From: Eubacterium sp.
GTDB lineage: Bacteria > Bacillota > Clostridia > Oscillospirales > Acutalibacteraceae
Direction of reading: 5' to 3'
Length of the DNA stretch: 64,000 nucleotides
NCBI GenBank assembly: GCA_029258375.1
Contig: JARHZA010000001.1
Span: forward strand, 372,001-436,000
This document shows, piece after piece, positions 27,612 through 47,206 of this stretch. A program made the position numbers and the translations under genes. The notes beneath the pieces were generated by a model. That model made no database searches and was not told where the DNA came from. It saw only the letters and a program-made list of their open reading frames with translations. How positions within the stretch are numbered: the first letter of the stretch is position 1; the number at the start of each line of letters is the position of its first letter.

Positions 27612-27942
27612 AGCGAGTTGATTGGACAGTTGCGCATTTTTAATGTGAGGAAAGTCCGAGCAGCACAGAGCAGGGTAACGGCTAACGGCCGCCGAGGGTG
27701 ACCTTAGGGAAAGTGCAACAGAAATAAACCGCCACTTTATGTGGTAAGGATGGAAAGGCGAGGTAAGAGCTCACCGAGCGAGTGGAGACATTCGCTGCCA
27801 TGTAAACCCTATCCGCTGCAACACAGAATGGGAGGTTGTTTGCTCGACACATAATCCCGAAATGTGGCTTGAGCGTGTCAGCAATGGCACGTCGAGATAG
27901 ATAATTGTCCACGACAGAACTCGGCTTATAGATCAACTCGCT
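27612..27942 (+). ncRNA. rnpB: RNase P RNA (bacterial class A)
   Basis: The RNA component of ribonuclease P, which matures tRNA 5' ends. The universally conserved segments are present in order: GAGGAAAGTCCGAGC (27647), AGCAGGGTAACGGC, GGAAAGTGCAACAGAAA, GGTAAGAGCTCACCGAGCG, and ACAGAACTCGGCTTATAG (27914). The P1 helix pairs AGCGAGTTGAT (27612) with ATCAACTCGCT (27932), which sets both ends at 331 nt. The ring of short reading frames inside is not coding. Confidence 0.95.
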
Positions 27943-27966
27943 CTTTAAAATGAATAGTTATAGCGC

Positions 27967-43889: not shown

Positions 43890-44078
43890 CTAAAACAGAT
43901 ATTCTCCAGTTCCGTCACAAAAGGGACATTTCCCAGTTCCACCGCAAACGTGACAAGGTACGAATTTATCTTTATCTACTTTAAATAATAAGGGGCTTGG
44001 CTCTAATTTGTTTAGGTCTTTAACTCCACCGCAGTAATAGCATATACCAGTGCCATTACAAAATTTACATTTTGACAA
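43890..44078 (-). CDS. 62-residue zinc-binding protein with four CxxC motifs (DnaJ-zinc-finger-like)
   Basis: It starts with TTG 44078, preceded by GGGGAG at 6 nt. The protein is almost entirely two pairs of CxxC: Cys4-Cys7 (CKFCNGTG), Cys13-Cys16 (CYYCGG), Cys42-Cys45 (CHVCGGTG) and Cys51-Cys54 (CPFCDGTG). This CxxCxGxG repeat is the DnaJ zinc-finger consensus and would bind two zinc ions, but there is no J domain. It could be a redox chaperone accessory or a zinc scaffold. It lies downstream of agrC but in the same direction with a 156-bp gap, so a link to agr is not shown. Confidence 0.75.
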   Translation of the reverse strand: MSKCKFCNGTGICYYCGGVKDLNKLEPSPLLFKVDKDKFVPCHVCGGTGKCPFCDGTGEYLF

Positions 44079-44234: not shown

Positions 44235-45521
44235 TTATTCTTTAAAAACTACCGTTGTGGTAAATTCTTTTTCATTTGAATCGTAACTCCACTCGTAATT
44301 GCCGTTATATTTATTTACGATGTTTTTAATGCTTTTTATACCATAACCGTGAAGCATTTTATCTTTTTTAGAAGTTAATAAACTGTTGTTTTGTATTATA
44401 GGTTTGTTGTCACAAGAGTTTGTGCAGGTTAAAACATCAAAACCCTGAATTTTATTTATTGAAAGTTCAATTCTTTTTTCTTGTGATGATATTGCAGACT
44501 CGTAAGCATTACTAAGTATATTGTTTAAAAAAGACGATAGGTCCATTTCATTCATAAAATTAAGATTTGCCGTTTTAATAATTGTGCTTAATTCAATATT
44601 ATTTATTTTGCATAGATCAGAATATTTATCTAAAATTAAGTCAAGTATTTTGTTATTTGTATTGCATTTTGGCGTGCATTTAACCAAATCATTATTTATT
44701 TTATAAACATATTCATCAACAAAAGGGTTGTTCGCTAATGCTTTAATTGTTGCCAAGTGATTTTTAGTATCGTGAACAAATATGTGCATCTCTTCATTTT
44801 TGAGTTCTAAAAGTTTGTAATATGTTTTGTCTGATTCAATTTTATTAAATTCGTGTTTTAGCCAAAATAATTCATCATCTTTTTTTATATTATCACCATA
44901 TAAAAAATATGTAACAATTATAGCAACTAATGATATAAAGCTGAATATAGATATCATTTCTTTTAGTTGAAAAGAAATTGCATATTCTTCAGATATTTTT
45001 CTAAAAAGTAATAGCGAAAAAACACAACAAAATGGATAAATAAAAAGATATAGTGGAACTTTGCTTTTTGGTTTGTTTTCAGGAAGAAGTTTTGTTAAAA
45101 ATTTGCATACTATTGTATAAAGAATTTTACTTATTGCAAGATTTAAAATATATATTTCAAAATCTGTTCTATAAGAATTTGTTTTTACATTAAGAATACA
45201 AGAAATTAAATAAACCGATATAAATTCTGTAATAGTCATAGTTGCAGTTAATATTAACGAATGAAAAAGCACTTTTTTGAAATTTGTTTCAAAACAAATT
45301 AAACAGTATATTATGTTTGCAAGAGTAAAAGACAAAACATTTATTGTAAAGTTATTGAAAAAGTAAATATTAACGCTACTAAGTAATAGGTAAATAGAAA
45401 AGCCATATAATAACACAATGCTTCTTTTGAACTTCTTGTTTAAAAAATCTGAAAAATATAAAAAAGCGATAAGCATTTCTATTTCATAAGTAGCAATGTT
45501 TATCAAGTTAATATAAAACAT
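44235..45521 (-). CDS. agrC: Agr-type sensor histidine kinase (GHKL family)
   Basis: 428 residues. The first 210 residues hold about six TM segments for peptide sensing. The kinase part has the H box HDTKNHLATIK with phosphoacceptor His250, the N box NNILSNAYESAI and the G box GYGIKSIKN near the end, the AgrC/HPK10 arrangement. It should autophosphorylate when an extracellular cyclic peptide binds and pass the phosphate to AgrA. It follows agrA by 2 nt with GGAGAG before its ATG, so the two are co-translated. Confidence 0.9.
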   Translation of the reverse strand: MFYINLINIATYEIEMLIAFLYFSDFLNKKFKRSIVLLYGFSIYLLLSSVNIYFFNNFTINVLSFTLANIIYCLICFETNFKKVLFHSLILTATMTITEFISVYLISCILNVKTNSYRTDFEIYILNLAISKILYTIVCKFLTKLLPENKPKSKVPLYLFIYPFCCVFSLLLFRKISEEYAISFQLKEMISIFSFISLVAIIVTYFLYGDNIKKDDELFWLKHEFNKIESDKTYYKLLELKNEEMHIFVHDTKNHLATIKALANNPFVDEYVYKINNDLVKCTPKCNTNNKILDLILDKYSDLCKINNIELSTIIKTANLNFMNEMDLSSFLNNILSNAYESAISSQEKRIELSINKIQGFDVLTCTNSCDNKPIIQNNSLLTSKKDKMLHGYGIKSIKNIVNKYNGNYEWSYDSNEKEFTTTVVFKE

Positions 45522-45523
45522 AG

Positions 45524-46228
45524 TTATCTCTCCGTAAAATATTTTAAAAAGTAATTTCTAAATTCAGCACGTTTTCTGTACGCAACAGGTGTTTCATATT
45601 TATTATTTAACTCAACAATATCACGTTGATATTTAGTTATAAATTTCATATTTATAATGTAGCTTGTGTGAACTTGGTAAAAGAAAGATGCAGTTAGTTT
45701 TTCTTTCCAATATTTTATATTATGGCTTGATATATAAATGTCTTTATCAGTAACTATTTTTGTGCTTCTATCAACGATTTCTATGTAAATAATATTGTTA
45801 GCAGGTATTTTAACAATGCTATTATCTTTCTTTAAATAAACATCTATAATTGAATGGTCTATAAGAGAAATAGCTTTTTCAAGTCCGCTGTAAAGTCTTT
45901 TTGTGTTAATAGGTTTAGTAAGAAATCTTAAAACATTTAAGTCCATAGCATCATCAAGATATTTTTCATAAGCAGTTATGATAAAAATAATTACGTGCTT
46001 GTTTTTATCTTTAAGTATTTTTGCTATTTCCGTTCCTTTTACATTGCCAATTTCAATATCTAAAAATGCAATATCATAGCTGTTTTCTTTACAGTGCTCT
46101 TTCGCCTCTAAACCAGAAGAAAAAGTATCAATTTTTTCATCAAAACCATGTTTATTCATAAAATTTGACACTTTTTCTTTTATTTCATATATATTCTTTT
46201 CTTCGTCATCACAAATTAAAATATTCAT
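45524..46228 (-). CDS. agrA: LytTR response regulator (AgrA-like)
   Basis: 234 residues from ATG 46228, with AGGAG 7 nt upstream; a reading from 46243 would bury the site. The N-terminal receiver has acidic ICDDEEKN, phosphoacceptor Asp57 (IAFLDIE), Thr in FIITAYEK and Lys in FLTKPIN. The C-terminal LytTR DNA-binding domain reads YIEIVDRSTKIV, FFYQVHTSYIINMKFI. Phosphorylated AgrA is expected to activate the divergent agrD-agrB promoter, where phased direct repeats are found. Confidence 0.9.
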   Translation of the reverse strand: MNILICDDEEKNIYEIKEKVSNFMNKHGFDEKIDTFSSGLEAKEHCKENSYDIAFLDIEIGNVKGTEIAKILKDKNKHVIIFIITAYEKYLDDAMDLNVLRFLTKPINTKRLYSGLEKAISLIDHSIIDVYLKKDNSIVKIPANNIIYIEIVDRSTKIVTDKDIYISSHNIKYWKEKLTASFFYQVHTSYIINMKFITKYQRDIVELNNKYETPVAYRKRAEFRNYFLKYFTER

Positions 46229-46316
46229 TCTTTCTCCTAACATTTAATGCTTTTTAAACAATACAAAGTGAATTTTTAATTTTCAAATTTAGTAATACAA
46301 CAATATTTAACATAAT

Positions 46317-46350
46317 GTGTGCATTTTTGGTGCATTAGTGTGCGATTTTG
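46317..46350 (+). promoter_or_regulatory. Phased direct repeats, probable AgrA (LytTR) binding site
   Basis: GTGTGCATTTT (46317) and GTGTGCGATTTT (46338) lie 21 bp apart, with a third GTGCATT at 46330 between them. The 21-bp period is two helical turns and matches the spacing of AgrA/LytTR half-sites. The repeats end about 10 bp upstream of the -35 of the agrD promoter, the position of a class I/II activator. Confidence 0.65.
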
Positions 46351-46359
46351 AAAATCATA

Positions 46360-46388
46360 TTGTAAAATTTCGCAGATAAATCTATTAT
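46360..46388 (+). promoter_or_regulatory. Promoter of agrD-agrB
   Basis: TTGTAA (46360-46365) and TATTAT (46383-46388), spacer 17 bp. A weak -35 fits a promoter that needs AgrA bound at the repeats just upstream. Confidence 0.65.
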
Positions 46389-46419
46389 ATAACAAAACTT
46401 AGTACGAGGAGGTAAAAAT

Positions 46420-46581
46420 ATGTCGAAAGCATCTAAATTCATTTCTTCAAAAGTTCTAAAAGGTATGGCAAACGCAGCAGAATCTTCATTAACAAGAGAA
46501 GCAAATTCAACTTCTTGTGGAATGATTTATCAGCCAAAAGCACCTGCATCACTTAAGAAATTTAGTAAGATTGAAAAATGA
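46420..46581 (+). CDS. agrD: AgrD-type cyclic thiolactone autoinducer precursor (53 aa)
   Basis: 53 residues starting at ATG 46420, with GAGGAGG 7 nt upstream. The precursor has the three AgrD parts: an amphipathic N-terminal leader (MSKASKFISSKVLKGMANAA), a core NSTSCGMIY with Cys33 followed by four residues, and the acidic/lysine tail starting QPKAPASLKKF, the pattern of clostridial AgrD. AgrB should cut after Tyr37 and close a thiolactone between Cys33 and the Tyr37 carboxyl, giving a five-residue ring. The stop overlaps agrB by 4 nt. The ring residues are inferred; the exact N-terminal trimming is unknown. Confidence 0.88.
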   Translation: MSKASKFISSKVLKGMANAAESSLTREANSTSCGMIYQPKAPASLKKFSKIEK

Positions 46582-47162
46582 TAAGTGCATTATCAAAAAA
46601 AATTACGAATACACTAATTGATAAAAATAGTATATGTAAAGAAGACAGAGAACTATATGAATATGGCTTTTTTATGTTATTATCTAATTTATATTTTACG
46701 GTTATAACTTGTTTGTTAGGAATCGTTTTTGGTGTGTTTTTTGAAAGTTTAGTTTTCTTTGTATCATTTATGTTAATAAGAAAATATGCTGGTGGATATC
46801 ACGCTAAAACAGAAACAAGATGTCAAATATTTTCAACTGCTTCAATTTTTTTGTCAGTTATATTTATTAGATATATTGATTTTGAAAAAATATCATTATT
46901 TTTGTTTATATTAACTGTAATAGCATCTATTTTGATTTTTGCTTTTTCACCACTTGATACACCAGAAAAACCACTTGATATAAAAGAAAAAAGTTATTTT
47001 AAAAAAATATCATATATAATTCTAACTGTTTTAGATATATTTTTTGTAGTTGCTTATTTTTTAAACTGGAATGAGATTTCTGTTTCTGTTGCAACTGCAA
47101 TTTTATTTGAAAGTGTTTTAATAACTCTTGGTAAGATTTCAAGAATTAAACGTAATAATTAA
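46578..47162 (+). CDS. agrB: AgrB peptide-processing membrane protease
   Basis: 194 residues with about five TM helices. Catalytic His75 and Cys82 sit in RKYAGGYHAKTETRC, the AgrB signature, matching the His/Cys pair of characterised homologues. It removes the AgrD C-terminal tail and makes the thiolactone ring. Its ATG is inside the agrD stop (ATGA), so the two are tightly coupled. A terminator follows at 47166. With agrC-agrA divergent, the locus is a complete agr quorum-sensing circuit. Confidence 0.92.
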   Translation: MISALSKKITNTLIDKNSICKEDRELYEYGFFMLLSNLYFTVITCLLGIVFGVFFESLVFFVSFMLIRKYAGGYHAKTETRCQIFSTASIFLSVIFIRYIDFEKISLFLFILTVIASILIFAFSPLDTPEKPLDIKEKSYFKKISYIILTVLDIFFVVAYFLNWNEISVSVATAILFESVLITLGKISRIKRNN

Positions 47163-47165
47163 AAG

Positions 47166-47206
47166 AACAGTCGAGTTGTTTTATTCCCACAACTCGACTG
47201 TTTTTC
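47166..47206 (+). terminator. Terminator of agrD-agrB
   Basis: Perfect 14-bp stem AACAGTCGAGTTGT/ACAACTCGACTGTT followed by TTTCTTTTTT. Confidence 0.85.

What the first reader, a model, noticed from the sequence alone, without database searches (positions are those of the whole stretch)
46420..46581. A 53-residue agrD completes an agr quorum-sensing locus
The short gene falls below usual ORF cut-offs, yet it has a strong ribosome binding site, overlaps agrB by ATGA, and has the three parts of an AgrD precursor. The predicted pheromone is a five-residue thiolactone ring, Cys33-Gly-Met-Ile-Tyr37. The ring sequence appears specific to this lineage and, to my knowledge, is not a described autoinducer.
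Basis: partly seen in the sequence, partly recalled or inferred. Interest (0 to 1): 0.75.

Follow-up and report, generated by a model that had tools for sequence, protein, structure and literature searches.

The report
Agr peptide gene with shifted cysteine
This is a genuine small gene for a cyclic-peptide signal that gut bacteria probably use to sense one another, and the residue that closes its ring sits one place away from the usual position, so the signal may have an unusually small ring.

Summary
The gene at 46420-46581 is a real agrD (TIGR04223, 40.1 bits, cut-off 19), overlapping an intact agrB by ATGA, with a divergent AgrA/AgrC pair upstream. The genome has one match each for AgrD, AgrB and LytTR.

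The predicted ring CGMIY is doubtful. I aligned 230 distinct AgrD cores on the tail motif. In published systems the residue at position 0 follows the cut. 226 of 230 cores have C, S or T at -5, the five-residue-ring position. Here Ser32 is at -5, Cys33 at -4, and Tyr37 on position 0. The window belongs to an AgrB subclade of 28 loci in which -4 is always Cys (22) or Ser (6) and -5 is Thr, Ser or Gly.

Three products fit: a tetrapeptide thiolactone [CGMI] if the cut is unchanged (preferred, about 0.45); [CGMIY] if the cut also moved (about 0.35); a Ser32 lactone [SCGMI] (about 0.12). MS with fragmentation decides.

The parts
46420..46581 (+). agrD, 53 aa AIP precursor; Ser32 46513-46515, Cys33 46516-46518, Ile36 46525-46527, Tyr37 46528-46530, tail QPKAP from 46531
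   Evidence: TIGR04223 40.1 bits, cut-off 19; ORF and sequence
46578..47162 (+). agrB, membrane peptidase/cyclase, 194 aa, His75 and Cys82
   Evidence: PF04647 1.4e-43; pair conserved in 132 of 133 rows each
45524..46243 (-). agrA-like response regulator, receiver plus LytTR, divergent from agrD; the only LytTR match in the genome
   Evidence: PF00072 9.1e-18, PF04397 1.3e-16
44235..45521 (-). agrC-like sensor kinase: five hydrophobic segment candidates, H box VHDTKNHL (His250), GHKL domain
   Evidence: PF14501 1.9e-19; motifs and segments
46407..46412 (+). AGGAGG ribosome binding site of agrD
   Evidence: sequence
46317..46346 (+). candidate LytTR (AgrA) operator: 9-bp direct repeats GTGTGCATT / GTGTGCGAT, 12-bp spacer
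   Evidence: 15 of 2000 shuffles as good by an ad hoc score; the only exact GTGTGC-N15-GTGTGC in the genome; not seen in relatives by eye
47163..47205 (+). probable intrinsic terminator of agrDB (17-bp stem, then T-rich run)

Best explanation
An agr quorum-sensing locus. AgrB cleaves AgrD at the family-typical place before Tyr37-Gln38-Pro39 and transfers the Ile36 acyl group to the Cys33 thiol. Because Cys33 lies one residue nearer the cut than in canonical AgrD, the product is a four-residue (13-membered) thiolactone, Cys-Gly-Met-Ile, with an N-terminal tail of unknown length. A second protease, possibly the genome's single Rce1/CPBP-like protein, removes the leader. The exported peptide is sensed by the divergent AgrC, and AgrA feeds back on the intergenic promoter. 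Shown: genes, motifs, gene order, the position of Cys33 in the register and the restriction of that position to C/S in the subclade. Inferred: the cut site, ring size, leader protease, receptor pairing and feedback.
For: Gene identity and order. In the 28-locus AgrB subclade the -4 residue is Cys 22 / Ser 6 and nothing else, the C/S interchange expected of a ring nucleophile; -5 is T22 S5 G1, so in L080 the nucleophile cannot be the -5 residue. Entropy along the core: -3, -2, -1 = 2.95, 2.85, 2.65 bits, then position 0 = 1.10, like the post-cut position of the Cys-at-minus-5 class (1.56) and unlike its ring positions (2.86-3.54). The subclade's position-0 residues fit the canonical post-cut profile better than the last-ring-residue profile (-60 against -107 bits). 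L012 and L019 share -4 to -1 = CMIY and differ H/Y at position 0. Cys at -6 also occurs with the tail kept: L209, L251, L257; six-residue-ring AIPs are on record for C. acetobutylicum (PMC10301443, PMC4916163 passages), a precedent for ring size other than five. In C. thermocellum the LC-MS/MS-confirmed lactone is S25-F29, with Y30 and a conserved P35 named after it (PMC5322536 passages), which fits position 0 and the last P at +5.
Against: No four-residue AIP is in the part of the review table that I saw (PMC12312760 passages), and a 13-membered thiolactone should be more strained (recalled chemistry). Position 0 in the subclade gains F/W (6 of 28 against 0 of 59 canonical cores) and loses H/N/G (1 of 28 against 27 of 59), as if it had become a hydrophobic ring residue. 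Aligned on the nucleophile, ring residues -3 to -1 fit the canonical profile better by 33 bits in total, 17 of 28 rows. The Tyr of the tail motif could be kept by descent whichever bond is cut. The sequences are related and the groups differ in size, so these tests are not independent or exact. The C. acetobutylicum AgrD register could not be read here (none found).
Confidence: 0.45

Rival explanations
1. One reading: thiolactone Cys33-Gly-Met-Ile-Tyr37, five residues (16-membered). Nucleophile and AgrB cut both moved by one, so AgrB cuts Tyr37-Gln38.
For: Five-residue rings dominate known AIPs (table passages in PMC12312760). Position 0 is almost purely aromatic hydrophobic in the subclade, Y21 F5 W1 H1, which suits a last ring residue. 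Nucleophile-anchored ring profile better by 33 bits.
Against: Tyr37 falls on the post-cut position of the family, and the alignment from the leader-side ANST to QPKxP is gapless against the core ANSTCPWIIHQPKVP of L195. The fifth ring residue would be nearly fixed while the other three vary freely.
Confidence: 0.35
2. Lactone closed by Ser32 at the canonical -5 position: Ser-Cys-Gly-Met-Ile, usual cut, Cys33 only a passenger in the ring.
For: 226 of 230 cores have C, S or T at -5. Predicted Ser lactones are common in the genus-to-order set (49 of 151 cores have Ser at -5 without Cys at -4). L160 has a Cys at -4 beside Ser -5 while its close AgrB neighbour L168 (0.14 changes per column) has no Cys, so such a Cys can be incidental.
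Against: In the window's subclade -4 is only C or S in 28 of 28, and -5 is mostly Thr and once Gly. A passenger residue should not be so restricted.
Confidence: 0.12
3. The locus is intact in sequence but silent or decaying, with no AIP made.
For: No expression data; 18 of 80 genomes of the genus have a TIGR04223 hit (16 of the 51 that are at least 90% complete and at most 5% contaminated), so the system seems dispensable.
Against: All four genes are open, catalytic residues kept, and the start, overlap, terminator and divergent layout are intact.
Confidence: 0.05

Closest known systems
AgrD family cyclic lactone autoinducer peptide (TIGR04223) with AgrB (PF04647)
   Same: Precursor length, core followed by a P-x-x-P tail, partner AgrB with His/Cys pair
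   Different: Ring Cys at -4 instead of -5 relative to the tail; agrD precedes agrB and agrCA is divergent
Clostridioides difficile agr1 AgrD (ANST[CPWII]) and C. thermocellum AgrD lactone
   Same: Same leader-side ANST motif (C. difficile) and an aromatic or His residue just after the ring
   Different: Their nucleophile (Cys or Ser) is at -5, giving five-residue rings
Clostridium acetobutylicum AgrD (six-residue ring CVLVTL)
   Same: Ring size may depart from five
   Different: Larger ring, opposite direction; register not checked here
Staphylococcus aureus agrBDCA
   Same: AgrB, AgrD, AgrC, AgrA parts; D33/E34 just after the cut correspond to Tyr37/Gln38
   Different: One operon BDCA with RNAIII; Cys28 at -5; no divergent agrDB

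Membership tests
AgrD (TIGR04223) | Profile score above curated cut-off | tested here: met
   40.1 bits against 19
AgrD (TIGR04223) | Conserved P-x-x-P tail after [QE] | tested here: met
   QPKAP at residues 38-42; 244 of 250 fetched hits could be anchored on this motif with the first P relaxed
AgrD (TIGR04223) | Cys or Ser nucleophile five residues before the post-cut position | tested here: inconclusive
   Ser32 sits there; Cys33 is one place later
AgrD (TIGR04223) | Amphipathic N-terminal leader | tested here: inconclusive
   Moment 0.35; 796 of 5000 shuffles as high
AgrD (TIGR04223) | Cyclic product made by AgrB | not testable with these tools
   Needs MS
agr quorum-sensing locus | Adjacent AgrB with catalytic His and Cys | tested here: met
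   PF04647 1.4e-43; His75, Cys82
agr quorum-sensing locus | AgrC-like membrane kinase and LytTR AgrA | tested here: met
   27 of 28 subclade loci have an AgrA-like ORF divergent from agrD, and the other (L118) an AgrC-like ORF
agr quorum-sensing locus | Density-dependent autoinduction | not testable with these tools
   Only a candidate operator was found

The most novel reading that the evidence does not exclude
A subclade of gut clostridial agr systems makes four-residue (13-membered) thiolactone or lactone signals by keeping the AgrB cut and moving the nucleophile one residue toward it, so that agr ring size is set by where the Cys/Ser lies (6, 5 or 4).
Probability: 0.45. Interest if true: 0.65.

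Novelty: new variant of a known kind. Interest (0 to 1): 0.45.

Why it matters
AgrB makes the cut and closes the ring, and known rings are mostly five residues. A natural subclade with the nucleophile shifted by one lets that rule be tested directly. It also warns against predicting AIPs by counting five residues from the Cys, which would put wrong masses on a search list if the cut has not moved.

Tried and rejected
Considered and rejected: chance ORF (profile score, partner gene, relatives). Treating every Cys at -4 as the ring Cys: L160/L168 shows it can be incidental, so I relied on the AgrB subclade instead. Regulon search by LytTR repeats: only the agr site matched exactly; the two one-mismatch hits are no more than the two of the reversed control pattern; the repeat was not seen in relatives (by eye), so I do not lean on it. 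C. acetobutylicum register: pattern searches in two families found nothing (0 of 11 genomes; 0 of 14). Structure prediction was not used, since complexes cannot be folded here. A PDB search with AgrB gave one weak hit, to TMH4C4, E 0.047. The leader moment test did not reach significance.

Rows dropped or not taken: one apparent repeat copy (G428, same score) not fetched, one apparent repeat copy (G563, same score) and one match with an internal stop (G610) not fetched. Of the class matches I used 88 that were not fetched before, taken from the top of a list that was itself cut short, and skipped an apparent repeat (G1157) and one other (G887:C429) among the ranks covered. Unanchored: 3 of 162 and 3 of 88. 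The anchor allowed a relaxed first P in both sets, and also D for [QE]. L028 and L159 were removed before class counts as spurious or misanchored. AgrB tree: 128 rows of the 134 loci with an AgrB, after dropping short, misplaced and identical rows; the bootstrap had not settled; support of the 28-row clade is 80/86, of the nested 26-row clade 98/84.

Full report
What is there. The ORF at 46420-46581 (+) encodes 53 residues, starts with ATG behind AGGAGG (46407-46412), and shares ATGA with the next gene. NCBIfam TIGR04223 (quorum_AgrD) hits it at 2.8e-10, 40.1 bits over a cut-off of 19, with 37 residues on 37 profile positions. The next ORF is AgrB (PF04647, 1.4e-43), carrying His75 and Cys82, each kept in 132 of 133 AgrB rows, the window's being counted twice. 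Upstream and divergent lie a receiver-LytTR protein and a GHKL kinase with an H box VHDTKNHL. The genome holds one match each, at E up to 0.001, for AgrD, AgrB, LytTR and the Rce1/CPBP family. A 17-bp stem followed by a T-rich run ends agrDB.

Where it is. The window lies in a 1.7-Mb, 98% complete genome. Four loci match contigs of genomes in the same genus, by equal contig lengths; their public titles read uncultured Clostridia or Eubacterium sp., with sample names that suggest rabbit and goat in two cases. TIGR04223 hits occur in 18 of 80 genomes of the genus, 61 of 395 of the family sample, 58 of 395 of the order sample and 123 of 393 of the class sample. These samples overlap.

Register of the ring. 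I read 162 hits from the genus, family and order searches (159 anchored) and 88 from the class search (85 anchored), anchored on x-[QE]-P-x-x-P with the first P relaxed (and D allowed for [QE]). Two were removed as spurious or misanchored, leaving 230 distinct cores. Position 0 is the residue before [QE]: Y in 153 of 230, H in 50, F in 10. Two published systems place it just after the cut. The C. thermocellum AIP, confirmed by targeted LC-MS/MS, is a lactone of S25-F29, and the text names Y30 and a conserved P35 after it, which fits position 0 and the last P at +5 (PMC5322536, passages). In S. aureus, C28 and M32 bound the ring and D33 and E34 are essential for cleavage (PMC10196373, passages). 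At -5, 226 of 230 cores have C (111), S (83) or T (32). The window has Ser32 at -5 and Cys33 at -4. Cys at -4 without Cys at -5 occurs in 33 of 151 cores of the genus-to-order set and 0 of 79 of the class set.

A dedicated subclade. I found AgrB in 134 of 159 loci and built a tree of 128 (bootstrap not settled). The window's AgrB sits in a group of 28 (support 80/86; nested group of 26, 98/84) that has no Cys-at-minus-5 AgrD. All 28 lie in genomes that the tool places in the window's own family. In these 28, -4 is C22 S6, -5 is T22 S5 G1, -8 is N27, and Q, P and the last P of the motif are fixed. Restriction of -4 to C or S, with C or S in near relatives (L012/L027), is what a ring nucleophile shows. 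It also argues against Ser32, though not conclusively: L160 and L168 have close AgrBs and only one has the -4 Cys, so such a Cys can be incidental in other clades. In 27 of 28 loci an AgrA-like ORF is divergent upstream of agrD; the other, L118, has an AgrC-like ORF there.

Which cut. For the family cut (Ile36-Tyr37): Tyr37 is at the post-cut column; entropy falls from 2.65 bits at -1 to 1.10 at 0, as at the canonical cut, whereas canonical ring positions have 2.86-3.54; position 0 fits the canonical post-cut profile by 46 bits over the last-ring profile. The leader side is gapless against the ANSTCPWIIHQPKVP core of L195, whose ring matches the C. difficile entry in PMC12312760. Cys also occurs at -6 with the tail kept in L209, L251 and L257, and six-residue rings are described for C. 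acetobutylicum (PMC10301443, PMC4916163, passages). For a moved cut (Tyr37-Gln38): F or W at position 0 in 6 of 28 against 0 of 59 canonical cores, H, N or G in 1 of 28 against 27 of 59, and the three ring residues fit the nucleophile-anchored canonical profile better by 33 bits, 17 of 28 rows. Related sequences make the p-values too small. I prefer the tetrapeptide thiolactone at 0.45, with CGMIY at 0.35 and the Ser32 lactone at 0.12.

Regulation. The agrA-agrD gap holds GTGTGCATT-N12-GTGTGCGAT at 46317-46346, the spacing of a LytTR operator (recalled). 15 of 2000 dinucleotide shuffles do as well by a score of my own, and it is the only exact GTGTGC-N15-GTGTGC in the genome. A weak promoter-like pair follows at 46360-46388, no more than chance would give in that scan (7 found in the region, 8.9 expected). 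Autoregulation is inferred.

Novelty. CGMIY, YQPKAP and SCGMIY appear in 0 papers of the held open-access library. No four-residue AIP turned up: one search searched AgrD, AgrB, tetrapeptide, four-residue, thiolactone and macrocycle (at least four of them), and none of the 15 papers listed of 18 contained tetrapeptide or four-residue. Most subscription papers are not held, so this is not proof. I read no paper in full, only passages. I call it a new variant of a known kind.

Noticed in passing
L011, L027, L029, L106, L111, L113, L118, L099, L101, L105: AgrDs of the same family with an NST-like or NGT-like leader in which the -4 Cys is replaced by Ser or, in L029, L106 and L113, Thr: candidate lactone signals. 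Not all of their AgrBs fall in the window's subclade.
   Followed up: partly
L232, L245, L140, L108: AgrD cores with Thr at the canonical -5 position and neither Cys nor Ser at -4 (TFFTS, TNGIG, TLFDC, TGFFM): candidate threonine lactones; I recall no described Thr-closed AIP.
   Followed up: no
L209, L251, L257: AgrD with Cys at -6 and the usual tail: predicted six-residue rings outside the window's order. The unanchored L264 and L269 look alike.
   Followed up: no
window 43890-44078 (-): 62-aa protein with four CxxC pairs, DnaJ-zinc-finger-like repeats; Pfam DUF7895 9.5e-05 and DnaJ_CXXCXGXG 0.064, both below cut-off.
   Followed up: partly
window 27614-27944 (+): RNase P RNA class A (Rfam RF00010, 278 bits).
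   Followed up: no
G076 (L004, L023, L027, L029, L030): One genome of the genus carries five AgrD hits, one with Cys at -5 and four of the NST-[TS]-[CST] kind: a natural multi-signal genome.
   Followed up: partly
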